Source: Emcibacteraceae bacterium (GTDB taxonomy: Bacteria; Pseudomonadota; Alphaproteobacteria; Sphingomonadales; Emcibacteraceae). From it: a stretch of DNA of 47,323 nucleotides. Each line of letters begins with the position of its first letter. The stretch's first letter is position 1. The translations under genes were made by a program, and so were the position numbers. Location: NCBI GenBank assembly GCA_028281625.1, contig JANQJN010000147.1, forward strand, positions 1 through 47,323. Reading direction: 5' to 3'. This document shows, one piece after another, positions 8,215 to 42,933 of this stretch. The notes beneath the pieces were generated by a model that saw only the letters and a list, made by a program, of their open reading frames with translations, did no database searches and was not told the origin of the DNA.

Positions 8215-9975
8215 TCAATTCATATAATTCCATTTTTTGATATTATTGCACAACTCTGTCATTTTTTTATCTAAATCTAAGTGTTTCGAAAATTCCTCCT
8301 TGGCCTTCATAAGTGGCTTTAACTTGTTCGCTAGATCTACTTTGCGATCTTTAAATTGTTTAATGCCCGGATGTTCAAAAACATTTTCAAATGGCCCCAC
8401 GCCTTTCCAAGTTTTAGGATAACAATATGATTTCCAGATAGACGCAGGAATATAGTTCTCAACTTCTTTGCCTTTACTGATCCAAATCATGCTTACTTCA
8501 GCTTCTTCAGCTTCCTTTTTTATTCGAGAAACCTCCTTTTTCAACGCTCCGCTAGCCGAGCGCCGGTCACTATCAATAATTATCGCTGAATTTCTATTGA
8601 TTCTGAGCAACGAAACTCGTTCAGGAGTGCTATAGTTGGGATTTGCAGTTATGTGCTTAATCAAAGCTCCTCCGTACAAAGCAATTTGATAATGTGCTCC
8701 CTCTACCAAAATCCCTTTAGACCATATTTTGATCCAGCGATTTAAATATATCCTATCCGAAGGTCCTTCGACCCAGATTACACAATTGGCTTGTAGTAGG
8801 TCGGAAGCCTTAATCTCAAGGTCGTCCAGTATCTTACTTGTATCTTTATGTGAAATAGCCGGTGAAACTTGCGCCTCTGATCCATCATGTGTCACATGCA
8901 GTATCTGCGCATAATCCTTTTTTGCAAACCAATCAATTGCAACGTTTGAATGAGTTGACAAAATAAACGTACACTTGTTTTTTACTTGGTACTTCTCCAG
9001 ATACAAAAACAATCTTCTCAATAGTGCCGGATGCAAATTATTCTCCAGCTCTTCGAATGCAAAGACTAATTGCTCTTTTCCTACATTTTTTGCCGAAGGA
9101 ATGAGTATTAAGTTCAGCAGTACAAGAATTACAGTTTTCAAACTGCTGCCAGACGCAGAAAGATTGATTAATCCCTTATTTTTTTCCTCTAGTTGAATTT
9201 CGTAAGCGGCGTCGGCATGTTGAGCAACTCTTATTCTAGAAAAGAAATTGTCTCCCTTATATATCTCGTTTAACGCATTCAATAATTCGTGATGCACTAA
9301 ACCATCGTTCCATTTGCTCTGGTTTGTAAACGCCCAAATCATGCTAGTGGCCCCGTCTCCTGATGGCATCAAATCCACGTCTCCAACATTTCCCGTGGTT
9401 GTGATGTCTCGCTCTGCGAGAACTCTATACAAGTACAATCTACTAAATGGGGATCTATAATTGCTAAACAATACGGTATGAGCTCTGGTAAATGTTGTAA
9501 TCTCTGGCGTAAACAATATTTCTTGGTGTCCTAAATCATTTGCATTTGAAACCGCTTCGAAATTTGTGTGATTTGCGTCACCTCTACTTCTACCAACAAC
9601 CCAATACTCCAACATTTTTTCGTAAATAGGATTTGGGCTTGGTCGATTGTTAATCATAACTGATTGCGGCCCAAAATTGTTGTTCCCATTGTTTTTTAAA
9701 CCAAGTGCTTGATCCTTGATTTCTGGGCGGCCCAATTTAGTCCGAATGAAGATATTTTGAGTATCTTCTGCACCTTGCCTTTGGGTATTTAACTTATCCC
9801 TATTACTATTTGGAGTTACTGATTCCACAATTTCAATCAAGGCAGATTTGCCTGTATTGTTTTTGCCAATAATAATATTAAAAGGACGAAATTCGACAAA
9901 ACCCTGAGGTACCATACCGAAGCATTTGAAATTGTTTGCAAGCAACCCTAGGTCATCTAAATTGCAATTTACCAT
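8215..9975 (-). CDS. OLD-family ATPase/TOPRIM endonuclease
   Basis: A 586-residue AAA/ABC-type ATPase fused to a TOPRIM nuclease. Walker A is GKNNTGKS at residues 37-44; a signature-like LSASGSSLK and Walker B VFAFEELENNLHP are followed by the H-loop LSTHSN. The TOPRIM part has VEGPSDRIYLNRW and IIIDSDRRSASG with the expected Glu and Asp metal ligands. OLD proteins are DNA nucleases, many of them anti-phage. GajA of Gabija has a similar size, but no UvrD-like GajB neighbour is present, so this fits a solitary class 1 OLD protein. The gene is visibly more AT-rich than the flanks, which suggests horizontal transfer. The ATG at 9975 has a good GGGGGA site. Confidence 0.85.
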   Translation of the reverse strand: MVNCNLDDLGLLANNFKCFGMVPQGFVEFRPFNIIIGKNNTGKSALIEIVESVTPNSNRDKLNTQRQGAEDTQNIFIRTKLGRPEIKDQALGLKNNGNNNFGPQSVMINNRPSPNPIYEKMLEYWVVGRSRGDANHTNFEAVSNANDLGHQEILFTPEITTFTRAHTVLFSNYRSPFSRLYLYRVLAERDITTTGNVGDVDLMPSGDGATSMIWAFTNQSKWNDGLVHHELLNALNEIYKGDNFFSRIRVAQHADAAYEIQLEEKNKGLINLSASGSSLKTVILVLLNLILIPSAKNVGKEQLVFAFEELENNLHPALLRRLFLYLEKYQVKNKCTFILSTHSNVAIDWFAKKDYAQILHVTHDGSEAQVSPAISHKDTSKILDDLEIKASDLLQANCVIWVEGPSDRIYLNRWIKIWSKGILVEGAHYQIALYGGALIKHITANPNYSTPERVSLLRINRNSAIIIDSDRRSASGALKKEVSRIKKEAEEAEVSMIWISKGKEVENYIPASIWKSYCYPKTWKGVGPFENVFEHPGIKQFKDRKVDLANKLKPLMKAKEEFSKHLDLDKKMTELCNNIKKWNYMN

Positions 9976-10048
9976 CAAAATCCCCCTTGCAAAGACTATG
10001 CCTACATTAAGTTAAATGACATATACAAATGTAGTTTACAATTTTCTA

Positions 10049-22273: not shown

Positions 22274-22729
22274 CTACTTCGCCGCTATCGCCTCAACTTC
22301 CACCAAGATCTGTGGACCCGCAAGCGACTTGACCACCAGCGCCGTCTGCGCCGGTCTAAAATCCTGGCCGAAGTAGCGGTTCCTTGCTTCCATGATGGTG
22401 CCGATATATTCCACTTCGGTATAGAACAGATTGATTTTCATAATATGCTCCGGCCCCATCCCCGCAGCCTTCACCACTTCATAAAGGTTTCTAAAGGCGA
22501 TGTCCGCCTGTTCCTCAATCCCCTCACCATAATTCCCGTCCTTATCGGACCCCACCTGCCCGGCAGTGATCAGCACCTCCATCCCCGCAGGAGCAAGCTT
22601 CCCCATCGCATAGCGGTTCGGCGTCGCAATGGTCGGCGGATCAAGGGTAACGATGCCGCTTTCTTGCGCGGAGGTTGGCGCGGTGAGCATAAACGCCCAG
22701 CAGATTAGAATGTATGCTACTTTCTTCAT
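22274..22729 (-). CDS. Exported RidA-family protein, copy 2
   Basis: A 151-residue protein with a GGGAG Shine-Dalgarno and a clear signal peptide MKKVAYILICWAFMLTAPTSAQ. The mature part is a RidA/YjgF/UK114 domain: VLITAGQVGSDKDGNYGEGIEEQADIAFRNLYEVVKAAGM and ALVVKSLAGPQILVEVEAIAAK. RidA enzymes hydrolyse reactive enamines/imines using an Arg near the C terminus; here that position (LAGPQILVEVEAIA) does not show the RVLVEIEAIA Arg of canonical RidA, so activity may differ. Cytosolic location is usual, which makes export notable. A paralogue lies 102 bases upstream. Confidence 0.88.
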   Translation of the reverse strand: MKKVAYILICWAFMLTAPTSAQESGIVTLDPPTIATPNRYAMGKLAPAGMEVLITAGQVGSDKDGNYGEGIEEQADIAFRNLYEVVKAAGMGPEHIMKINLFYTEVEYIGTIMEARNRYFGQDFRPAQTALVVKSLAGPQILVEVEAIAAK

Positions 22730-22831
22730 GATATTCTCCCAATTATCTATTTGGGGGAAAGGTATCACAGAAATACAAAAGCGTCATCCTCACGCCATCA
22801 TACTGGCGAAGGCCAAGATGATGCATTGTTC

Positions 22832-23287
22832 TTACTTTGCTGCGATTGCCTCCACTTCCACGAGGATCTGCTCATTGGCCAGTGATTTTACCACAATCGC
22901 GGTGAGCGCAGGGCGGAAGTCCTCACCGAAATATTTATCCCGCGCGTCAATGATGGTGAAGAAATCTTCCATATCCAGGTAGTACATGGTGATCTTCATG
23001 ACATTTTCCGGGCCCATGCCCGCGGCCGTTATCACGTCATAAAGGTTTTTAAAGGCAAGATCGGCCTGCGCCTCTATCCCTTCGGCATAGACACCATTTT
23101 TATCGGCCCCTACCTGCCCGGCAGTGACAAGCACCTGCGCCCCCGCCGGCGCAAACGTCCCCATGGCATAAATCTCCGGCCGCCCGAGCGACGGAGGATC
23201 AATGGCAGTGACGCCGTACTCCTGCGCATGGGATGGCGCTGTTAGCGTAAGTGCAAAGCCGAGTAAAATTACCGCCAGTTTTTTCAT
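22832..23287 (-). CDS. Exported RidA-family protein, copy 1
   Basis: A 151-residue paralogue of the next gene with AGGAG upstream and the signal peptide MKKLAVILLGFALTLTAPSHAQ. The RidA domain has VLVTAGQVGADKNGVYAEGIEAQADLAFKNLYDVITAAGM and ends LANEQILVEVEAIAAK, again lacking the catalytic-type Arg of canonical RidA. Signal peptide and domain are alike in both copies, so the duplication happened after export was acquired. It is divergent from the PARIS-like cassette, with a palindrome and an inverted repeat between them. Confidence 0.88.
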   Translation of the reverse strand: MKKLAVILLGFALTLTAPSHAQEYGVTAIDPPSLGRPEIYAMGTFAPAGAQVLVTAGQVGADKNGVYAEGIEAQADLAFKNLYDVITAAGMGPENVMKITMYYLDMEDFFTIIDARDKYFGEDFRPALTAIVVKSLANEQILVEVEAIAAK

Positions 23288-23370: not shown

Positions 23371-23458
23371 TTGTACAACAAGTAGAGATTGCACTTTACT
23401 ACAGAGTATAAGGTTCTATTATAAAACTGCAGCAATTGTTGGAAAGGGGGAATTATCT

Positions 23459-24727
23459 TTGTTCAAGATACAAAAATTTAAAGTCAATGGATTTTGGCAC
23501 AGACTTACTGCTGAGTGCGACTTTAATGACGATGTAAATGTAATTATCGGTAGAAATGGGACTGGCAAAACGACATTTATGAACATACTTCACGCAATAC
23601 TTGTCGTGGATATGGATAAAATCATAGAAAACGATTTTGACTCTATTGAAATTTATTTGTCGTCAGGCAAAAAACGAAAAAAGATAACTGCTGTCAAGGT
23701 AGACGACCCAGATTTACCATTTGTATACATGGAATACAAAATTTCGAGGAAAAATTACAAGTTTCGAATTGTACCTTCAGAAAGCAGAGCCGTTTACAGA
23801 AATAGATCTTTAAATGATATGATTGAAGTAAAAACGGAACTAGATAAAATAGTTTCAGTATCTTCACTATCAGTTTATAGATCGAAAAGCGACGATGAAT
23901 ACGAAGTAAGAACACGCCGGGGAGAAAAAATTCTATCTTCTGTCGATTATCGACTTTCGAAAATTCTCGAAGAATTAACTAGTTATCAGCTAGAACTTTC
24001 ACAAGAAGCCCGATCTGTTGCTACAGGACTTCAAAAAGACGTTCTTACTTCAATACTGTTTAGTAAGGAGGACATGACAAATGACATAGAACTGTCTTTT
24101 GACATGGAAGCGGAAAAACTTCGCCTAAAAAGCGCGTACAAGCAGCTTAATGTTTGGGATACCCAAGTAAATAAGAAAATTAATTATCACGTAAACGCGA
24201 TTGATAAGTCTATCAAAAATTTGAAAAAATCTATTTCAGATGACGACGATATTAAGCCAAGTGACACACTTAATATTATGAAATCGTTGGTAGCGCTAAA
24301 TCAGACAAGTTCAATTATCGAGATGTCACTTATTGCAGAAGAACTTATCGATGATATTTATAGTCAAGTGCAACTTTACCATGACACAATTAAGTTATTC
24401 ATACGCGATAAAGAGTTTGAACTGGAAGATGCTGGAAATCTGAATATTGTGGCCAAAAGCGGGCCCATAAATTATCAAAAACTATCGTCAGGCGAAAAAC
24501 AATTACTAATATTATTAACTGAAGCATTGCTTCAAAAGAAAGAGCCTCACGTCTTCTTAGCAGACGAACCTGAACTATCACTTCATATAGCTTGGCAAAA
24601 AATGATTATACCAGCAGTTAGAGACCTCAACCCTAACGCACAAGTGATCGTTGCCACTCATTCTCCTGAAGTGGCTGGCAAATTTGCTGACTCGATTATA
24701 GATATGGAAGACATAACTGATGGCTAG
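23459..24727 (+). CDS. AAA/ABC-type ATPase, PARIS AriA-like
   Basis: A 422-residue ATPase starting at TTG 23459, eight bases after an AAAGGGGG site; an ATG at 23312 would extend it through the leader inverted repeat and is rejected. Walker A GRNGTGKT is at residues 31-38. After a long helical insertion come a signature KLSSGEKQLLILL, Walker B VFLADEPELSLH and the switch His in VATHSPEV, the RecF/OLD-like arrangement. AriA of PARIS is an ATPase of this class and size, scaffold for the effector AriB. The gene overlaps the DUF4435 gene by eight bases and is AT-rich. Confidence 0.85.
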   Translation: MFKIQKFKVNGFWHRLTAECDFNDDVNVIIGRNGTGKTTFMNILHAILVVDMDKIIENDFDSIEIYLSSGKKRKKITAVKVDDPDLPFVYMEYKISRKNYKFRIVPSESRAVYRNRSLNDMIEVKTELDKIVSVSSLSVYRSKSDDEYEVRTRRGEKILSSVDYRLSKILEELTSYQLELSQEARSVATGLQKDVLTSILFSKEDMTNDIELSFDMEAEKLRLKSAYKQLNVWDTQVNKKINYHVNAIDKSIKNLKKSISDDDDIKPSDTLNIMKSLVALNQTSSIIEMSLIAEELIDDIYSQVQLYHDTIKLFIRDKEFELEDAGNLNIVAKSGPINYQKLSSGEKQLLILLTEALLQKKEPHVFLADEPELSLHIAWQKMIIPAVRDLNPNAQVIVATHSPEVAGKFADSIIDMEDITDG

Positions 24728-25550
24728 TATCTCTTATTCAAATGATGCATTAAATGTACTATCAAAGTTCCATCAAGTGGATAAAATCATGTACGTAGAA
24801 GGTGAAGAGGATGTCCTTTTCTGGGATCATTTGATAACTCTTTTTTCCGATAAAACAGTTCGCGTGGAAGAAGTTGGTGGAAAGGATGAAGTAAAAAAGT
24901 ATGCGAGAAAACTACAATCAGATGATATTGATTGTTTAGTAGCAATAGATGCGGACTATATTTGTTATGAAGAACAGTTTAAACACGATCGAATATTAAC
25001 TACCTATGGTTATTCTATTGAAAATTCGATACTAACAAGTTCCATAATAAGAGAAGTTGTACACAATGTTGGAAAAATTCCCTATTCAGATTTTTCCGAA
25101 AATGAATGTAGGGATTGGTTTGATTTACTATATGACACATTGGAGCCACTTCTTATTCACGACGTTTACAATAAGAAAAATGACCTTGGTGAACTAGTGC
25201 TAGGAAACAACTGTGCTAGGTTTCTTAAGACTTCAACGTCGCATGATTTGTGCGAAAACAAAATAGAAAACTTTATCGATAAGTTGCCATTTTCTGTGTC
25301 GCAATCAGATATTGATGAAATAATTGACGATTTCACGAAATTTGGAAGAATACTAAAAGATTTTATTAGAGGCCATTTTCTTTTTTCTGCTGTTTTGAGA
25401 TACGTAAACACCACGGTTAATCGCATTAGAAAAACGACCATGATTTCCAAAGATTTTATTTATGGAGCAGTAATGCTTGCTTTTCGGTTCAAGTTTGACG
25501 ATTCACATCCTCATTACGAATATTACGAAAGAAGTATATCCTCAATTTAA
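24720..25550 (+). CDS. DUF4435/TOPRIM-like effector, PARIS AriB-like
   Basis: A 276-residue DUF4435-type protein with TOPRIM-like features: MYVEGEEDVLFWDHL carries the conserved acid E27, and CLVAIDADYICYEE carries D77 and D79. The C-terminal half is helical. In PARIS the DUF4435 protein AriB is released from AriA when a phage anti-restriction protein is sensed, and its nuclease activity shuts down the cell. Overlap with the ATPase gene implies translational coupling. It converges with the ABC importer operon only six bases beyond the stop. AT content is high, as in its partner. Confidence 0.82.
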   Translation: MASISYSNDALNVLSKFHQVDKIMYVEGEEDVLFWDHLITLFSDKTVRVEEVGGKDEVKKYARKLQSDDIDCLVAIDADYICYEEQFKHDRILTTYGYSIENSILTSSIIREVVHNVGKIPYSDFSENECRDWFDLLYDTLEPLLIHDVYNKKNDLGELVLGNNCARFLKTSTSHDLCENKIENFIDKLPFSVSQSDIDEIIDDFTKFGRILKDFIRGHFLFSAVLRYVNTTVNRIRKTTMISKDFIYGAVMLAFRFKFDDSHPHYEYYERSISSI

Positions 25551-25556
25551 GCCCTC

Positions 25557-26567
25557 CTAAACCCTCTCCCCCTTTTCATTAAAAAGATACGCCTTTTGCA
25601 TATTCAGAAGTAGCCTTACTTCGTCGCCGACATTGGCGGTGAAGATGCCGGGGACTTTGGCGACGAGTTCGTTTTCGGCGTAGTTGACGGTGAGGAGCGT
25701 TTCGGCGCCGAGGGGTTCGGTGACGGTGACCGTGCCCTTGATTTTTTTATGGCCGGGTGGGGTATCGTCGCCCGCGATCGTGATATGTTCCGGTCTGATC
25801 CCGAGTGTGATGGCGCCCATGGCGATGCCTTTAGGCGCGCGGATGAAATTCATTTCCGGGCTTCCGATGAAACCGGCGACGAACTGGTTCGCCGGGTTTT
25901 CATAAAGCTCCAAAGGCGAACCAATTTGTTGGATTTTTCCCTGGTCCAGCACCACAATCCGGTCAGCCAGGGTCATGGCTTCGGTTTGATCGTGGGTGAC
26001 GTAAATGATTGTTGTATTTACGGTTTTATGGAGTTTCTTAATTTCTGCGCGCATGTTGCCGCGTAGTTTTGCGTCCAGGTTTGATAAGGGTTCATCAAAG
26101 AGAAACACGCTCGGCTCCCGGACCATGGCGCGGCCGATGGCGACCCGCTGGCGCTGGCCACCGGAAAGTTCATGCGGTTTTCTGAATATCAGTTCTTCAA
26201 TATCAAGCACCGCTGCCACCTGCTGGACGCGATATTCAATTTCGCGTTTTGATAGCTTCATGGCGCGAAGCCCGAAGGCGATATTCTGATAAACGCTCAT
26301 GTGGGGGTAAAGGGCATAATTCTGAAACACCATGGCGATGTTGCGCTTGCCGGGTTCCAGATCATTGACCCGCGTGCCGCCGATGTCGATGTCACCCCTG
26401 GTGATGTCCTCCAGCCCCGCAATCATCCGCAGCAGAGTTGATTTGCCGCATCCCGACGGCCCCACGAGGACGAGCAGTTCTTTATCGTTGATATCAAGGC
26501 TCAGATCCTCAATGATTGTATTTTCATCATAAGATTTTGAAATATTTGATATTTTTAAATCAGCCAT
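25557..26567 (-). CDS. Sugar-type ABC importer ATPase (MalK/UgpC class)
   Basis: A 336-residue ATPase; the ATG at 26567 overlaps the lyase gene and has GGGAGGAT upstream. Walker A GPSGCGKST, Q-loop VFQNYALYPHMSVYQNI, signature LSGGQRQRVAIGRA, Walker B VFLFDEPLSNLDAK, switch His in YVTHDQTEAM, then a C-terminal OB/TOBE regulatory domain (IRPEHITIAG..., KGTVTVTEPLGAETLLTV). All are typical of MalK/UgpC ATPases that power family-1 importers. It is the last gene of the operon and would pair with the two permeases. Confidence 0.93.
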   Translation of the reverse strand: MADLKISNISKSYDENTIIEDLSLDINDKELLVLVGPSGCGKSTLLRMIAGLEDITRGDIDIGGTRVNDLEPGKRNIAMVFQNYALYPHMSVYQNIAFGLRAMKLSKREIEYRVQQVAAVLDIEELIFRKPHELSGGQRQRVAIGRAMVREPSVFLFDEPLSNLDAKLRGNMRAEIKKLHKTVNTTIIYVTHDQTEAMTLADRIVVLDQGKIQQIGSPLELYENPANQFVAGFIGSPEMNFIRAPKGIAMGAITLGIRPEHITIAGDDTPPGHKKIKGTVTVTEPLGAETLLTVNYAENELVAKVPGIFTANVGDEVRLLLNMQKAYLFNEKGERV

Positions 26568-28089
26568 CTGATCCTCCCCCACGCTTCAGCGGCGCACCGG
26601 TGCGTTTCTGGACCTCAGTACCAAGCAGTTCCCGCGCGCCCAGAAGCCGCTCAAAAAAGGCGACATTCTGATTGCTTTGGTTGATCGCGGTGGCGGTATA
26701 TTTCTTTAAACTTTCCTCAAAAGCCGGGATTGCCGGGCCACCGGTTAAAGTCCTTACGGATACGAAATGACCTGGACTGCCAATTTCAGCGAGTTTTGCC
26801 GCGTCAATGGTCGTTTCGGATCCAGTACAATCCTTATAAATCAGCGAAAATTGGCTATGATTTATGGTCTCAAGGCTGATATTTTCCTGGGCGACAAGCT
26901 TCGCCATTTGCGCCGCTACTTCATGGGCTTCGCGAAAAGAAATACCCTCAATACGGGAAATACTGTCTGCTACTTCCGTTACTGTTGCGCAGGTTTTACC
27001 GATGTCTGCTGCGATCTTATCTTCATCGATCCTGACGGCAGCCATAAATTCATTAAGAAGTCGTAATAATCTTGATCCTGTCTCGAATACTTTATGTCCC
27101 GCCGCTTGAACTTCGGTCTCACTGTCATTCATATCTGTAAACGGTGTGTTGTGCATGGTATTGACGATAGTATCACAATGTCCGATTGAAAGACTACTGA
27201 GTAGTCGCATATGTTCGATGGGAACAGGGTTTCTTTTTTGTGGCATAATGGAACTTATCTGGACAAATTCATTGGGAACATAGATATGCCCCGCTTCAAA
27301 GGACGTCCTTTGCGCAAGATCCTGAATGAAGCGACCGATACCCACAAACATCACCTTAAGCGCGCTATAAAGCCCGGTGACATAATCAACGCTGGAGATA
27401 CAACCATATGAATTTTCCAGCGGCGCAGAAAAGCCAAGCAATTCTGCCATGCGTTCCCGGCTCAGCGGGAAGCCGGTGGTGGTGATCGCCGCCGCCCCCA
27501 TGGAGGAAAGATCCGCAGTACTCACACCCAAGGTGATCCGATCCACATCCCGCTGCAGATTTTCAATAAAGGCACCCAGATAGTGGCCCCAGGTGGTCGG
27601 CTGAGCGGGCTGTCCGTGGGTGTAAGCGAGGATGATGGTTGATTTTCCTTCCTCCGCAATCCGGAGTAAGGTTGCAATTAGCTGATTAAGTTCCGTCAGT
27701 AAAACCGCTGATAAATCAAGGAGATGCATCTTGAAAATGGTGTGGTCAATGTCGTTTCGCGACCGCCCGGTATGGAGCCGCCCGGCGAGGTCGGGGCCAA
27801 GTTTCTTAATAAGTTCCCCCTCCACATAGAAGAAATAATCCTCCACCTCCCCGGTATATTCGAGGGCACTCAAATCCAGATCATTTTCAATTTCCACCAG
27901 GGCATTGAGAATGTCCCTGCCCTGGTCTTCACTTAAAATTCCCTGCTCCGTGAGCATGATGCAGTGAGCGAGGTTGACGCGAAAATGATAATCCGCAAAT
28001 GTGGTTTTTGAGGCATCAAAAAGCGGTGCGAGGACCGTTTCCTTATATACCTCGTTGGGGAATGTTGATGTGTCTTCAAATTTACTCAT
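26560..28089 (-). CDS. ArgH-superfamily lyase embedded in an importer operon
   Basis: A 509-residue aspartase/fumarase-superfamily enzyme closest to argininosuccinate lyase. It has HTGRSRNDIDHT (residue 106 on), the general-acid His in YTHGQPAQP (H158) and the flexible signature loop SSIMPQKRNP (279-288). The family cleaves C-N bonds of succinyl compounds, releasing fumarate. True ArgH sits with arginine genes; this copy is three bases after a MalG-like permease and overlaps the ATPase gene, so it probably degrades an imported compound. Related enzymes such as EDDS lyase show that non-arginine substrates occur. A housekeeping ArgH elsewhere is expected. Confidence 0.85.
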   Translation of the reverse strand: MSKFEDTSTFPNEVYKETVLAPLFDASKTTFADYHFRVNLAHCIMLTEQGILSEDQGRDILNALVEIENDLDLSALEYTGEVEDYFFYVEGELIKKLGPDLAGRLHTGRSRNDIDHTIFKMHLLDLSAVLLTELNQLIATLLRIAEEGKSTIILAYTHGQPAQPTTWGHYLGAFIENLQRDVDRITLGVSTADLSSMGAAAITTTGFPLSRERMAELLGFSAPLENSYGCISSVDYVTGLYSALKVMFVGIGRFIQDLAQRTSFEAGHIYVPNEFVQISSIMPQKRNPVPIEHMRLLSSLSIGHCDTIVNTMHNTPFTDMNDSETEVQAAGHKVFETGSRLLRLLNEFMAAVRIDEDKIAADIGKTCATVTEVADSISRIEGISFREAHEVAAQMAKLVAQENISLETINHSQFSLIYKDCTGSETTIDAAKLAEIGSPGHFVSVRTLTGGPAIPAFEESLKKYTATAINQSNQNVAFFERLLGARELLGTEVQKRTGAPLKRGGGSDG

Positions 28090-33729: not shown

Positions 33730-33906
33730 TCAATTTTAACCAAATTTTAGTAAATTTTATCATTTATTTTCAATAACTTATAATATTCTTTAATGCTTTC
33801 ATTAAGAGTTCGGTAAGGCGCTCCGCTTATTCTGATTCGCAACCGATGAACTGTCCGGACGAGTAGGACAAATTTGATTGTGGACAAATTTGATTACGGA
33901 GCGATT

Positions 33907-35895
33907 ATGACAACGACACGCATTATCCCCTCCCCAGTGCTTAAAACACTGAGGAAAATTTCCCTTGAAGCTGAAAAGAAAAGAAAGCTTGCAAAAAAAA
34001 CCGGTATTCTTATGACGACCCTTCCACTGGCCGCCTGTTTTAAGGGGGGCACCGGTGGTGATACCGCGAGCCTTGCGTCAGGTTCATTGGCGGTTACCAA
34101 CTTCGATGACAATGGCGGCAACAGCTATAGTGCCACTGATGATAATGACAGCGTGTTCATCGCTGAAGGCATGTCAGAGAGCTTCACGGTTGTCGGTGGT
34201 GCAGGTGATGACACCATCACAACAAGCAGTGGTAATGACCTGATCCGTGGCGGTGAAGGTGCTGATACCATCAATGCGGGTGATGGCAATGACAGTATTG
34301 TCGTGATCGGTACCACAACGGCTGGGCAGTACACTCAGGACGCCATTACCAATTCAGCAGGCACAGGCACTGACCTTTCAAGCGTGATCAGCCTTGCTGA
34401 TCTTAATGGTCGAACCGTCAGCGAAGTGGAAGCTGGCGAAGTGATTGACGGTGGCGCGGGGAATAACACCCTGTTTATTTACGGAACCGTGGATCTTACC
34501 GGTGTGACGCTTCGTAATGTGGATGTGCTGGTGGTGAACTCCAATGTGACACTAACACCGGAGCAGCTGGCGGAATTTACCACCATTGACGGTGACGGGC
34601 AGTCGATCCTGAATATTGAAGTGCCGGACGGTGCGGAAAGCGTGACCCTGGATCTTACCCAATATGACATCAGCGATGTGGGAACGCTCAATATTGACGG
34701 TGATATCACGATCATCATTGATGATATTTCCGATATTACCGAAATTGAGAACATCACCGTTGAGGATCTCTCACAGATTACCCTTGAAATTCAAGCAGGT
34801 GAAGATGGTACTACGTCGGTAAATCTTGGTGATCTGGGTGAAATTTTTGAACGGATCAATGTAATTGATGCCGATGAAGACTGTATCATCGAAGTGGACG
34901 AAAGTTCGGATCTTGATGATCTGGAGCTGGAAGCGATCGAAGGCGATTGCGACATTGAAGACAACAGTGACGGTGAAGCCGGTGACAAGATCGATGAAGT
35001 GGACAACACCGACGATGACGTGACCGAACCAACCCTTAAAAAGGTCTATTTTAACATTATCAAGGGCGATACCATCACCTTGACGGATGATCATATCCGC
35101 TTCTGTATGCCAGAAGAAAGCCAAGATGTGGTGACATTCTATGTCACTGAAATCGTCCACGGTGAATTTCGCATTGATGGCGTGGCTACACAGGAATTTA
35201 CCCTTGATCACCTTGAGGAAGGCCTGGTGACATTCACCCATGACGGATCAGACGAGCAGCCGGAATTCGGCCTCGGTATCCTCTGGTACGACGGTGAAAC
35301 CCTGCACGAAGGCAATGTGGTTGGTTCTGACTATGTTTATATGGCTGAATTTATTAAAGATGACGGCGTCTATGTTACCCGCGATGGACTTTCCGCCACC
35401 CTTGATAAGTCCTTCTACGACGGCGATGTTGAAGTCGAAGGCGCAAATGGTGACGACAATATCTCCACCGGTGGCGGCAATGACCATGTGGATGGCGGCG
35501 ATGGTGCGGATGTGATCAGCACCGACGGAGGCCATGATACGATCATTTACGGCGCTGGCGATAGCGTGGACGGCGGCGAAGGCTTCGATAGTCTGGTGAT
35601 TGAAGATGTTAACCTGACACTTGATCTATCAACCCTGGACGTGAACGGCGTTGAAATGATCGATCTTGAAGGTGCTGAAAACACCCTTACCTTCACCGTT
35701 CAGGATGTCCTTGATATATCAACCGAAACTCAGGATCTCGTGATCTGGGGCAATGAAGTAAACAGCATCAATTCCACCGGACAGGGATGGGATTATCAAG
35801 GCCAGGACGAATGGGAAGGCCAGATGATGAATGTCTACCTTATGGGTGATGCACAGCTTCTGGTGGATGCTGACATGATACAGAATATCAACTAA
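33907..35895 (+). CDS. RTX calcium-binding surface protein, shorter paralogue
   Basis: A 662-residue acidic protein; the ATG at 33907 has GGAG seven bases upstream. After a basic N terminus comes a short hydrophobic stretch ending LPLAAC (residues 39-44), lipobox-like but unusually far in. RTX nonapeptides GGAGDDTIT, SSGNDLIR, GGEGADTIN, AGDGNDSIV follow at about 97-132, and a second block (NGDDNISTGGGNDHVDGGDGADVIS) near residue 515. Between lie long Asp-rich strands, very like the protein at 40177. Such repeats bind calcium and fold outside the cell. It is convergent with the DUF4166 gene; the stops overlap. Confidence 0.82.
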   Translation: MTTTRIIPSPVLKTLRKISLEAEKKRKLAKKTGILMTTLPLAACFKGGTGGDTASLASGSLAVTNFDDNGGNSYSATDDNDSVFIAEGMSESFTVVGGAGDDTITTSSGNDLIRGGEGADTINAGDGNDSIVVIGTTTAGQYTQDAITNSAGTGTDLSSVISLADLNGRTVSEVEAGEVIDGGAGNNTLFIYGTVDLTGVTLRNVDVLVVNSNVTLTPEQLAEFTTIDGDGQSILNIEVPDGAESVTLDLTQYDISDVGTLNIDGDITIIIDDISDITEIENITVEDLSQITLEIQAGEDGTTSVNLGDLGEIFERINVIDADEDCIIEVDESSDLDDLELEAIEGDCDIEDNSDGEAGDKIDEVDNTDDDVTEPTLKKVYFNIIKGDTITLTDDHIRFCMPEESQDVVTFYVTEIVHGEFRIDGVATQEFTLDHLEEGLVTFTHDGSDEQPEFGLGILWYDGETLHEGNVVGSDYVYMAEFIKDDGVYVTRDGLSATLDKSFYDGDVEVEGANGDDNISTGGGNDHVDGGDGADVISTDGGHDTIIYGAGDSVDGGEGFDSLVIEDVNLTLDLSTLDVNGVEMIDLEGAENTLTFTVQDVLDISTETQDLVIWGNEVNSINSTGQGWDYQGQDEWEGQMMNVYLMGDAQLLVDADMIQNIN

Positions 35896-40012: not shown

Positions 40013-40176
40013 TAACTGAAATAGAGAAAAATGTCAAATAAAATCGAAAATATTTCAACCGTATTAGCCGATCCAAATACTTCTTAACTTGTCATTAACC
40101 ATAGATAAATATTATGGTTCTTCTACCAACGGTGATGATCATCGGGAATTATGTGTTGATCAATTGGGGGCAAAAA

Positions 40177-42933
40177 TTGAAACGATATATTGATAAAAAA
40201 TTTCAGCTAATATTAAACCGCTTAATGTCTCAAAGCAGTTACAAACCGCTTACCATGAGTATGGCATTGCTGCCTCTTGCTGCATGTGGCGGCGGCGGTA
40301 ATGGTGGTGGCAACAATCCAACTGCACCTGCTCCAGCCCCTCCCCCTGAACCGGATCCGGATTTTACCGAAAGTCCCATCAATGTTTTTGTCGCCCTTGA
40401 TAATCTTGACCGCACGTTAAGCGAAGGGGGTAATGCTGCGAACCTTACGGTCACCGGGAAAAATGGCAACGATAGTATCACAACAGGTTCGGGGGACGAC
40501 ATTGTATCTGGTTCTGGCGGTAACGATACAATCATCACCAATGGTGGTAATGACTTAATTCGCGCTGGTGAAGGTCGGGATACAATATCTGCCGGTACCG
40601 GTGATGACGGTATTGTCATTGTTGGAACGACCGCAGCTGATCAGTATACCAACGGTGCCATTACAAATTCCGGTGGTTCGGGTATGGATCTTTCGTCATT
40701 GATCACCCTTGCGGATCTAAACGGCCGCGGCGTAAGCGAAGTGGTTAGCGGCGAAGTGATCGATGGCGGGGCCGGTGTAAATACGCTTTATGTATACGGT
40801 ACAGTAGATCTTACCGGTGTTACGCTTAATAACGTAACCGTGCTTGTGGTCAATTCCGATGTCACACTAACACCAGAGCAGATTGCAAGCTTTACAACCG
40901 TTGACGGTGATGGCAATTCACTAATAACCATCGAAATCCCTGAAGGATCACCAGATAATTACATCCTAGATCTGTCAGCACTTGATTTAACGGATGTTCA
41001 GAGCATTCATATTGATGGTGACATCAGGGTCATGATTGACGATGCGTCGGATCTTGATGGCGTAGGAACCATCACCAATGGCGCCAGCGACGCGCTAACC
41101 CTTGAAGTTACGGGTGCCGGTTCCAATACAAATGTAAATCTTGGCGAAATCGCTGATACATTCACCGAAGTGGACGCGATTGAAATCGCCGAAGACGTCA
41201 CGCTTGAAGTCGACGACGCAAACGACATTACCACTTTGGGATTACAGGAAATTTCAGGAAACGGTGATGTTGAAAATGGTGGTGATGCAGACGTGCTTGA
41301 AGCCCTTGACGATATTGAAATTGACGAAAATATCGTGGTTGAACTGCCAAGTCTGTCCATTAGCGATGTCATATCCAATGAAGCAGACGAAAGTGCCATC
41401 TTCACTGTGACCCTCTCCGAACCCTGGGGGCAAACTGTTACCGTGGACTTTAGTGCACCTGATGGCAGCAGCGGCACCCTCACCTTCGCGCCTGGAGAGA
41501 CACAAAAGGCCTTTCCAACGGCCTGGAACGATGATGCACTTGATGAAACAGATGAAGTGGTAAGTGCAACACTCAGCAATCCCACCAACGCAACTGTCGC
41601 CGATGGCAGCGGTGAGCTCACCATTCAGGATGATGATGATCCGCTAATCGCAGTGGATGATACTGCAAGTGTCTCTGAAAATGGCTTCGTGCTGATCGAT
41701 GTACTTTCCAACGATCTTTTCGGAGAAGGGAATTTGGAAATAACGAGCGTCGAAATTATGTCCGATGGATGGGCCACTTATACCATTATCGACAATGAAG
41801 TCCGCTTTGAACCTGGTGATTTTTGGGACTATCTGGATGACGGTGAAAGCATTGACGTCCAGATTATATACGAAGTATCAGACGATGATGAAACTGATAC
41901 CGGCCAGATCGACATTACAATCAACGGGGTATCAGACACACTGCAAGCCGTTGATGATACTGCAAGTGTTGACGAGGATGGCACTGTACTGATGGATGTT
42001 CTCGCGAACGACCTCTTTGCCGAAGGGAATATGGCAATAACAGATGTTTTTCTTGCATCTGAAGAATTGGGTGTATTGACGATTGTCGACAATAAAATTC
42101 AATTTGAACCCAGCGATTTTTTTGATTTCCTCAATGATGGAGCAGGCATCCCTTTTTCATTCACATACGAAGTCTCAGATGACAATGAGTCCGACTGGGC
42201 GGAGGTGGTGGTTACAGTTAATGGTGTCACGGATTCGACGCTCCAGACGATTGGTGATTCAGCCAGTGTGGTCGAAGATGGTGTTGTCCTGATTGATGTG
42301 CTTGCAAATGACTTTTACGGCCAAGGGGATTTGGAAATCACCAACGTGGGTTACGTCAGTGAAGAATATGGCGTTCTTACCATTGTTGATAATAAAATCC
42401 AGTTTGATCCAGGCGGCGATTTTGATTTTCTTGAGGACGGTGAAAGCACCTACGCCTACATCACATATACCGCAGCCGACGATAATGGCTCCGATACTGC
42501 CGTGGTTGCAATAACTGTCAATGGTGTCACCCACAACTTGACGGCAGTGGATGACAGTGCGTCAGTTTCAGAAAATGGTATTTTACTTGTTGATGTACTT
42601 GCAAATGACCTCTATGCCGACGGTGATATGGAGATTACGAACCTTGGTTATGCCACCGATGATTGGGGCGATATCACAATCGTAAATGATCAAATCCAGT
42701 TTGAGCCAGGCGAGTATTTTGATTATCTGAGCGACGGTGAAAGCATTGACATTCAAATTACCTACGAAGTAACAGATGACAGCGAAACCGACCTTGGTGA
42801 GTTGACCATAACGGTTAATGGAGTTTCAAATAACCCGAGCCCCATGGACCGGCCTCCCTTATCCGATGCTAGCCACAGCTCTAATGGTGAAAATTTACTG
42901 GTTAATGAAGATATACCGCTAGCTATTGCCTGA
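40177..42933 (+). CDS. Large RTX/Calx-beta/cadherin-like surface protein
   Basis: A 918-residue, very acidic protein. The TTG at 40177 follows GGGGG by six bases; the ATG at 40114 is upstream but has no site. The N terminus has a short hydrophobic stretch ending LLPLAACGGGG (C37), then a proline linker (PTAPAPAPPPEPDPD), RTX nonapeptides at about residues 95-145, strands shared with the 33907 paralogue, a Calx-beta-like segment (about 405-505), and four roughly 98-residue cadherin-like repeats. A calcium-dependent adhesin or matrix protein is likely. No type I secretion gene is nearby. Confidence 0.82.
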   Translation: MKRYIDKKFQLILNRLMSQSSYKPLTMSMALLPLAACGGGGNGGGNNPTAPAPAPPPEPDPDFTESPINVFVALDNLDRTLSEGGNAANLTVTGKNGNDSITTGSGDDIVSGSGGNDTIITNGGNDLIRAGEGRDTISAGTGDDGIVIVGTTAADQYTNGAITNSGGSGMDLSSLITLADLNGRGVSEVVSGEVIDGGAGVNTLYVYGTVDLTGVTLNNVTVLVVNSDVTLTPEQIASFTTVDGDGNSLITIEIPEGSPDNYILDLSALDLTDVQSIHIDGDIRVMIDDASDLDGVGTITNGASDALTLEVTGAGSNTNVNLGEIADTFTEVDAIEIAEDVTLEVDDANDITTLGLQEISGNGDVENGGDADVLEALDDIEIDENIVVELPSLSISDVISNEADESAIFTVTLSEPWGQTVTVDFSAPDGSSGTLTFAPGETQKAFPTAWNDDALDETDEVVSATLSNPTNATVADGSGELTIQDDDDPLIAVDDTASVSENGFVLIDVLSNDLFGEGNLEITSVEIMSDGWATYTIIDNEVRFEPGDFWDYLDDGESIDVQIIYEVSDDDETDTGQIDITINGVSDTLQAVDDTASVDEDGTVLMDVLANDLFAEGNMAITDVFLASEELGVLTIVDNKIQFEPSDFFDFLNDGAGIPFSFTYEVSDDNESDWAEVVVTVNGVTDSTLQTIGDSASVVEDGVVLIDVLANDFYGQGDLEITNVGYVSEEYGVLTIVDNKIQFDPGGDFDFLEDGESTYAYITYTAADDNGSDTAVVAITVNGVTHNLTAVDDSASVSENGILLVDVLANDLYADGDMEITNLGYATDDWGDITIVNDQIQFEPGEYFDYLSDGESIDIQITYEVTDDSETDLGELTITVNGVSNNPSPMDRPPLSDASHSSNGENLLVNEDIPLAIA
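41650..42833 (+). repeat. Four tandem ~296-bp repeats coding cadherin-like domains
   Basis: Units begin near 41650, 41946, 42241 and 42541, each opening with a variant of AVDDTASVSENG and ending with a strand such as ITINGVSD. Nucleotide identity is visibly reduced between units, so duplication is not recent. The period of about 296 bases corresponds to about 98 residues. Confidence 0.75.

What the first reader, a model, noticed from the sequence alone, without database searches (positions are those of the whole stretch)
23459..25550. PARIS-like ATPase-DUF4435 anti-phage cassette in AT-rich DNA
Two overlapping genes encode a RecF/OLD-type ATPase (Walker A GRNGTGKT, SSGEKQ, ADEPELSLH, THSPE) and a DUF4435/TOPRIM-like protein (VEGEED with E27, IDAD). 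This is the architecture of PARIS (AriA/AriB). The block is visibly AT-richer than its neighbours and lies between unrelated genes. It could be a divergent PARIS subtype or a sister system with a different trigger.
Basis: partly seen in the sequence, partly recalled or inferred. Interest (0 to 1): 0.8.

Follow-up and report, generated by a model that had tools for sequence, protein, structure and literature searches.

The report
PARIS-type two-gene phage defence cassette
A bacterium carries a compact two-gene anti-phage system of the known PARIS family, a sensor ATPase plus a suicide nuclease, whose nearest relatives were found mostly in phage and prophage DNA.

Summary
Window 23459-25550 (+) encodes an ATPase (422 aa, TTG start) and a DUF4435/TOPRIM-like protein (276 aa) overlapping by 8 bp, in the most AT-rich 2.1 kb of the window (34.7% GC, mean 47.6%). 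Both pass the published PARIS score rule (AAA_15 74.8, AAA_21 76.7, DUF4435 97.5 bits). The ATPase's best solved relatives, by sequence and by predicted fold, are AriA. The effector is remote from canonical AriB, but profile comparison links them (E 1.6e-8). The catalytic E and D-x-D are kept; a loop that carries two tRNA-gripping lysines in E. coli B185 is missing as aligned, though those lysines are not constant even in nearer B185 relatives.

The close relatives (ATPase 42-52%) are 22 viral contigs, an E. coli P2-like phage and an Erwinia genome; 13 of the 22 have the pair between gpV and gpS. At the same chromosomal spot, congeners hold other cargo, TIR-like genes in 5 of 12 genomes.

Verdict: a real PARIS member of a divergent, largely phage-borne lineage. 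Trigger and RNA target are untested.

The parts
23459..24727 (+). AriA-type ABC/AAA ATPase (sensor and cage by analogy), 422 aa, TTG start
24720..25550 (+). AriB-type DUF4435/TOPRIM-like effector, 276 aa, ATG start
24720..24727 (+). 8-bp gene overlap. As annotated, also 8 bp in the E. coli phage and Nostoc plasmid cassettes. In the 22 close viral contigs 14 overlap by 8 bp and 8 by 11-14 bp, but there my script chose the ATG/GTG nearest to an 8-bp overlap, so the exact figure is biased
23441..23450 (+). likely ribosome-binding purine run ahead of the TTG start
   Evidence: sequence; inference
23549..23572 (+). Walker A GRNGTGKT
   Evidence: sequence; G31, N33, G34, G36, K37, T38 invariant in 8 of 8 AriA rows
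24485..24502 (+). ABC signature SSGEKQ
   Evidence: S343, S344, G345, E346 invariant in 8 of 8 rows
24560..24586 (+). Walker B ADEPELSLH
   Evidence: D369-E372 and S374-H376 invariant in 8 of 8 rows
24656..24670 (+). switch/H-loop THSPE
   Evidence: T400-P403 invariant in 8 of 8 rows
24798..24800 (+). predicted catalytic E27 of AriB (lines up with E26 of B185 AriB)
24948..24956 (+). D77-A-D79 predicted metal-binding motif (lines up with D88-R-E90 of B185 AriB)

Best explanation
The cassette is a PARIS abortive-infection system. Shown by sequence and structure comparison: the first gene is an AriA-family ATPase with complete ATP-binding motifs and a predicted AriA fold; the second is a DUF4435/TOPRIM-like AriB-family protein with its acidic catalytic residues kept; the genes overlap, which suggests translational coupling. 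Inferred from B185 PARIS: AriA assembles with AriB and holds it inactive; a phage protein made during infection binds AriA; a rearrangement frees and activates AriB; AriB cuts RNA, most likely tRNA, translation stops and the phage cannot finish its cycle. The loop that grips the tRNA anticodon arm in B185 is missing here as aligned, so the exact RNA target may differ. The host probably gained the cassette horizontally, from the pool carried by P2-like and other prophages, into a variable spot between conserved metabolic genes (inference).
For: Passes the published detection rule. PADLOC AriA 8.9e-42 and AriB 6.7e-25 are the best models. PDB best sequence hits are AriA. AriA model mean pLDDT 80.4; Foldseek ranks 1-15 are all chains of AriA-containing entries (E 2.2e-18 to 1.7e-13), then a retron ATPase at 4e-11. 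AriB profile against canonical AriB: probability 95.5, E 1.6e-8. AriB E27, D77, D79, E101 invariant in 21 of 21 distinct clade members, window included. An AriB-like ORF follows AriA in 22 of 22 close viral contigs. AriA tree joins the window to the P2-like phage cassettes with 99/97 support. AT-rich stretch, and other cargo at the same spot in congeners.
Against: No activity was tested. The AriB model is poor (pLDDT 52.5); its top fold hit is AriB 8ux9_A but only at E 0.04. AriB finds nothing in the PDB by sequence, alone or as a profile. K60 and K64, whose mutation abolished B185 defence (PMC12409363), have no counterpart as aligned. The PADLOC AriA model is loose at low scores: 384 of 398 genomes match it at E <= 0.001. 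Not every relative is an annotated pair: the Pseudanabaena effector and the Pantoea ATPase have no annotated partner, in a gene table that is incomplete. HSDR_N and PglZ were not found in the host assembly (96% complete, 205 contigs), so the anti-anti-restriction logic of B185 is not obviously in play.
Confidence: 0.8

Rival explanations
1. A sister OLD-type system in which the DUF4435 protein is a DNA nuclease (as in Gabija or OLD) rather than a tRNase, with the ATPase as its partner or regulator.
For: The TOPRIM-like region also scores on OLD-like_TOPRIM (22.7 bits, cut-off 23.2), and the B185 tRNA-gripping loop is missing as aligned.
Against: The OLD-like TOPRIM score is below its cut-off while DUF4435 scores 97.5; GajA structures match the ATPase only at E 0.004 against 3e-18 for AriA; AriA entries come first by fold.
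Confidence: 0.1
2. A toxin-antitoxin-like pair whose main selected role is maintenance of the DNA that carries it, with phage defence secondary.
For: Overlapping genes, an effector expected to be toxic once freed, and relatives in viral contigs and in three plasmid records.
Against: Here it sits alone in a chromosome-like contig between metabolic genes. In B185 PARIS deletion of either gene was non-toxic (PMC9122126, passage).
Confidence: 0.05
3. A decayed, non-functional relic.
For: One of 13 genus genomes, the window's own, has a full-length copy of the ATPase.
Against: Both frames are intact and the ATP-binding motifs and AriB acidic residues are kept.
Confidence: 0.05

Closest known systems
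PARIS (AriA/AriB) of E. coli B185 (PDB 8ux9, 8v45-8v49; PMC9122126, PMC12409363)
   Same: Gene order ATPase then DUF4435; AriA fold and ATP-binding motifs; AriB E26, D88-x-E90, S120-x-E-N and R236-G-H have counterparts E27, D77-x-D79, S99-x-E-N and R217-G-H.
   Different: Both proteins are shorter (422 and 276 aa, against a 464-aa AriA chain and 308/316-aa AriB chains in the PDB). AriB is 16-17% identical to the B185-like relatives L107 and L108, lacks the roughly 12-residue loop with K60/K64 as aligned, and has E29 where B185 has R28. It falls outside the B185-like AriA branch.
ATPase + DUF4435 cassette of Escherichia phage vB_EcoM-813R9 (ON470620.1), also in 18 of 5426 E. coli genomes
   Same: 49% (ATPase) and 34% (effector) identical over full length, same 8-bp overlap.
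   Different: It lies inside a P2-like phage between gpV and gpS; the window copy lies between RidA-like and ABC-transporter genes.
PtuA of retron Ec78 / Septu, and GajA of Gabija
   Same: OLD-family ATPase architecture.
   Different: Weaker matches by sequence and fold. The neighbouring genes scanned are RidA-like, CDGSH, ABC, lyase, kinase and one protein without a Pfam family; no HNH, reverse transcriptase or helicase hit among them.

Membership tests
PARIS (published rule of PMC9122126) | ATPase with AAA_15 score >= 32 or AAA_21 >= 27 | tested here: met
   74.8 and 76.7 bits (rule)
PARIS (published rule of PMC9122126) | DUF4435 protein with it, score >= 27 | tested here: met
   97.5 bits, 8-bp overlap
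PARIS | ATPase has the AriA fold | tested here: met
   Foldseek ranks 1-15 all chains of AriA-containing entries
PARIS | Effector homologous to canonical AriB | tested here: met
   hhalign probability 95.5, E 1.6e-8 over 207 columns. Against: pairwise BLAST not significant, PDB sequence searches empty, fold match weak on a poor model
PARIS | AriB TOPRIM catalytic residues (E26 and the acidic pair) | tested here: met
   E27, D77, D79 invariant in 21 of 21 distinct clade rows
PARIS, B185 type | Loop with K60/K64 that holds the tRNA anticodon loop (a B185 feature, not part of the family rule) | tested here: not met
   loop present in 3 of 20 aligned AriB rows (B185, L107, L108), absent in the window and 16 others, two of which (L011, L082) keep three residues there. 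The lysines themselves are not constant: in the printed rows L107 keeps only one of them and L108 neither. Low-identity alignment
PARIS | Triggered by an anti-restriction or other phage protein that binds AriA | not testable with these tools
   needs phage or co-expression assays
PARIS | Activated AriB cleaves tRNA | not testable with these tools
   needs tRNA-seq or in vitro cleavage
PARIS | AriA hexamer with three AriB | not testable with these tools
   only monomers were modelled here
Gabija / OLD | ATPase and TOPRIM fused in one protein, with the GajB helicase for Gabija | tested here: not met
   two separate genes; no helicase family among the neighbours scanned

The most novel reading that the evidence does not exclude
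This lineage is a sister form of PARIS in which AriB has no B185-type anticodon-gripping loop and therefore recognises a different tRNA, or another RNA, perhaps released by a trigger other than Ocr-type DNA mimics. Its main reservoir would be the gpV-gpS spot of P2-like prophages, from which it has reached chromosomes of distant bacteria.
Probability: 0.3. Interest if true: 0.55.

Novelty: new member of a known kind. Interest (0 to 1): 0.35.

Why it matters
PMC12409363 (discussion) leaves open whether the tRNA targets are conserved across PARIS systems. This lineage is a good test: same catalytic residues, but no B185-type tRNA-gripping loop as aligned. The E. coli phage copies (18 of 5426 genomes, 99% or more identical to the phage cassette over at least 80% of it) make it testable in laboratory strains. 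The chromosomal spot, with PARIS in one genome, SIR2-like or PD-T7-4-like plus TIR-like genes in two others, and CDGSH plus TIR-like genes in three, may be a small defence hotspot.

Tried and rejected
AriB by sequence against the PDB gave nothing at E <= 10, alone or as a 9-sequence profile. AriBs of L082 and L003 did not bridge to the solved AriB (the one hit, E 0.084, is unrelated); the bridge was L107, which matches 8ux9 AriB at E 6e-70. Scans of genome contigs and viral contigs with AriB alone found no relative; ATPase alignments did. The PADLOC AriA model as a census was rejected as unspecific (384 of 398 genomes). From that call's 30 loci I tested 27 (left out: L048, which is G299, already held as L002; L049, the window; L073, with an internal stop): 11 have an AriB-like ORF at E <= 0.01, one of which, L058, is the G237 locus whose AriB (L003) was in the model, so 10 of 26 are independent. 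No RNA family at the locus. Promoter- and terminator-like sites are at the shuffled level. The repeat search shows no long repeats around the cassette that would mark an insertion. AAA_15 and AAA_21 score almost the same, so I assign no subtype by ATPase domain.

Rows dropped before counts: one search had 25 AriB sequences, 21 distinct; one search had 25 AriA sequences, 20 distinct. In one search, 22 of 35 viral loci (L126-L147) form the close set, best-segment identity 42-52%; of the other 13, ten have a more distant AriB-like ORF and three (L153, L159, L160) have none. The model for one search was built from the 20 rows, which include the window and close relatives. In one search columns filled in fewer than three rows were left out of the print.

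Full report
What is there. Two plus-strand genes fill 23459-25550: an ATPase of 422 aa from a TTG start after a purine run, and a 276-aa protein whose ATG lies 8 bp inside the end of the first gene. The stretch is 34.7% GC; none of 453 equally long windows is lower, the mean is 47.6%, and the lowest window not touching it is 39.4%. Minus-strand genes flank it: two tandem RidA-like genes at 22274-22732 and 22832-23287, and an ABC-transporter ATPase at 25557-26582 followed by a lyase gene. No tRNA gene was found in the window, no RNA family at the locus, and no long repeats that would mark an insertion. The effector has one match in the host's own assembly.

Family tests. Pfam gives AAA_21 76.7, AAA_15 74.8 and DUF4435 97.5 bits. 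The rule in PMC9122126 (passages read) asks for 27, 32 and 27, so both genes pass. PADLOC puts AriA (8.9e-42) and AriB (6.7e-25) first; the next non-PARIS ATPase models are mad3 (5e-25) and PtuA (3.3e-21). The AriA model is loose at low scores: 384 of 398 phylum genomes match it at E <= 0.001. Stronger tests: AriA is the best PDB match by sequence (E 3.2e-18, against 3.9e-8 for the first retron ATPase), and an AlphaFold2 model of mean pLDDT 80.4 finds, at Foldseek ranks 1-15, only chains of the AriA-containing entries 8ux9, 8v45, 8v46, 8v47 and 8v49 (E 2.2e-18 to 1.7e-13), before a retron ATPase at 4e-11.

The effector. It has no significant pairwise similarity to a canonical AriB (E 0.24) and no PDB hit by sequence. 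A profile of the window and seven relatives against two B185-like AriBs gives probability 95.5 and E 1.6e-8 over 207 columns; one of those two, L107, matches the solved B185 AriB at E 6e-70. The AriB model is poor (pLDDT 52.5); its best fold match is AriB 8ux9_A, but at E 0.04, which I count as weak. E26 of B185, whose E26A mutant did not make the tRNA cleavage fragments (PMC12409363, section 18 part 3 read), lines up with E27, and D88-R-E90 with D77-A-D79. E27, D77, D79, E101 and N102 are invariant in 21 of 21 distinct clade sequences, window included. The loop of B185 with K60 and K64, whose mutation abolished defence (section 18 part 2 read), is present in 3 of 20 aligned rows (B185, L107, L108) and missing in the window and 16 others, two of which keep three residues. 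Two cautions: at these identities the loop alignment is a lead, not proof; and the lysines are not constant even where the loop exists, L107 keeping only one in the printed rows and L108 neither. So the missing lysines alone do not set this lineage apart. R28, placed on the D-loop in that paper's model, is E29 here; R236 corresponds to R217, which is R or K in the 21 rows printed.

Relatives. In phages, one record matches AriB, over its full length: the P2-like Escherichia phage vB_EcoM-813R9 (32.7%, E 4e-44). Its ATPase is 49% identical to the window's, with the same 8-bp overlap, between gpV and gpS; 18 of 5426 E. coli genomes carry that cassette. Plasmids gave three AriB matches: Nostoc with an ATPase overlapping by 8 bp, Deinococcus with an annotated ATPase that does not overlap, and Pseudanabaena with no annotated ATPase beside it. 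A Pantoea plasmid has the ATPase without an annotated DUF4435 gene; that gene table is incomplete. The B185-like pairs L107 and L108 overlap by 1 bp. In genome contigs, two patterns gave 30 relatives of the ATPase from a capped list, the first being [Erwinia] mediterraneensis at 51%. The seven that I examined (L077-L083) all have a partner gene downstream; of the six partners scanned with Pfam (L078-L083), all match DUF4435, five above the cut-off and L083 below it at 24.6 bits. In viral contigs, 35 loci were returned; 22 form the close set, all with an AriB-like ORF overlapping AriA by 8-14 bp (the start was chosen nearest to an 8-bp overlap). In 13 of those 22, homologues of gpV and gpS lie on the two sides; in nine, neither was found with the phage's own proteins as queries. 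Window ATPase identity to the 19 other distinct close members is 43-51% in one alignment. An AriA tree of 17 rows joins the window to the phage and Erwinia copies at 99/97, apart from the B185-like pair L107/L108; several other branches are long and unsure. The P2-like hotspot analysed in PMC9122126 lies between gpA and gpQ (passages), so gpV-gpS is another spot; that introduction says that two variable loci had been described in P2-like phages. I read passages only, and claim no absence from print.

Distribution near the host. DUF4435 matches occur in 9 of 385 genomes of the class, 7 over the cut-off, the window's included. The window's AriB as query matches 3 of 398 phylum genomes, itself included; the other two are weak (E 6.9e-6 and 4.7e-4). 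In the genus, the window's genome alone has a full-length ATPase match; five of the other 12 show weak partial matches. The cassette is thus sporadic, as horizontal gain would give.

The spot. I looked for the neighbouring ABC-transporter gene in 13 genus genomes; 12, the window's included, have a close copy. What lies downstream of it: PARIS in the window; a membrane-protein-like ORF, a PD-T7-4-like DUF4145 gene and a ThsB-like TIR gene in G405; a SIR2-like gene (below the Pfam cut-off) and a ThsB-like TIR gene in G406; CDGSH plus a ThsB-like TIR gene in G399, G400 and G408 (family scans on G399 and G400; G408 judged by its similar sequence); methyltransferase, HARE-HTH (below cut-off) and 8xMP genes in G403; an SNase gene in G404; a 107-aa ORF then RidA in G402; metabolic or unrelated genes in G398, G409 and G407 (for G398 and G407 by my reading of the sequence). 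TIR-like genes are at the spot in 5 of 12. This looks like a small variable locus with defence cargo, but most assemblies are drafts and I tested no other spot as background, so it is a lead.

Mechanism. From B185 PARIS (PMC12409363, introduction and discussion read): an AriA hexamer holds three AriB; a phage protein such as Ocr binds AriA; AriB is released, dimerises and nicks tRNAs between positions 40 and 41. Here the ATPase motifs, AriA fold, catalytic residues and gene overlap are shown; assembly, trigger and RNA cleavage are inferred. In the host assembly HSDR_N and PglZ were not found and N6_Mtase has one match of 33 bits (HSDR_N is found in 9 and PglZ in 2 of 14 control genomes). I did not look for other restriction types. 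A role as second line behind type I restriction or BREX is thus not supported by the host's own genes, though B185 PARIS does not need them (PMC9122126, passage).

Verdict. It is a member of a known kind, in a divergent and largely phage-borne lineage.

Noticed in passing
window 8215-9978 (-): A gene in the next most AT-rich part of the window for a 587-aa OLD-like protein: AAA_15 and AAA_21 over cut-off; PADLOC lists general AriA-type ATPase models first (1.8e-17), then GajA (1.4e-14); a TOPRIM-like VEGPSD stretch by eye. A second candidate defence gene about 13 kb from the cassette.
   Followed up: partly
window 22274-22732 and 22832-23287 (-): Two tandem RidA-like genes, 70% identical in DNA over most of their length, each starting with a signal-peptide-like stretch (by eye).
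   Followed up: no
L040 6823-7191; L042 4492-4950; L118 1567-1935; L119 3746-4135; L117 6257-6625: Short ThsB-like TIR-domain genes (122-152 aa) at the same spot in 5 of 12 genus genomes, with SIR2-like, DUF4145/PD-T7-4-like or CDGSH neighbours; may be Thoeris-like or a separate small system. L117 was judged by similarity, not scanned.
   Followed up: partly
L121 22-2200: Methyltransferase (weak mad2 match), HARE-HTH-like protein and 8xMP membrane protein in a row beside the same ABC gene; possible uncharacterised defence operon.
   Followed up: no
L126, L129-L137, L144, L146, L147, L077, L039: ATPase + DUF4435 cassettes at the gpV-gpS position of P2-like phages, a spot distinct from the gpA-gpQ hotspot in PMC9122126.
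   Followed up: yes
window 33874-35895 and 40114-42933 (+): Two long proteins with RTX calcium-binding repeats and cadherin/Ig-like domains.
   Followed up: no
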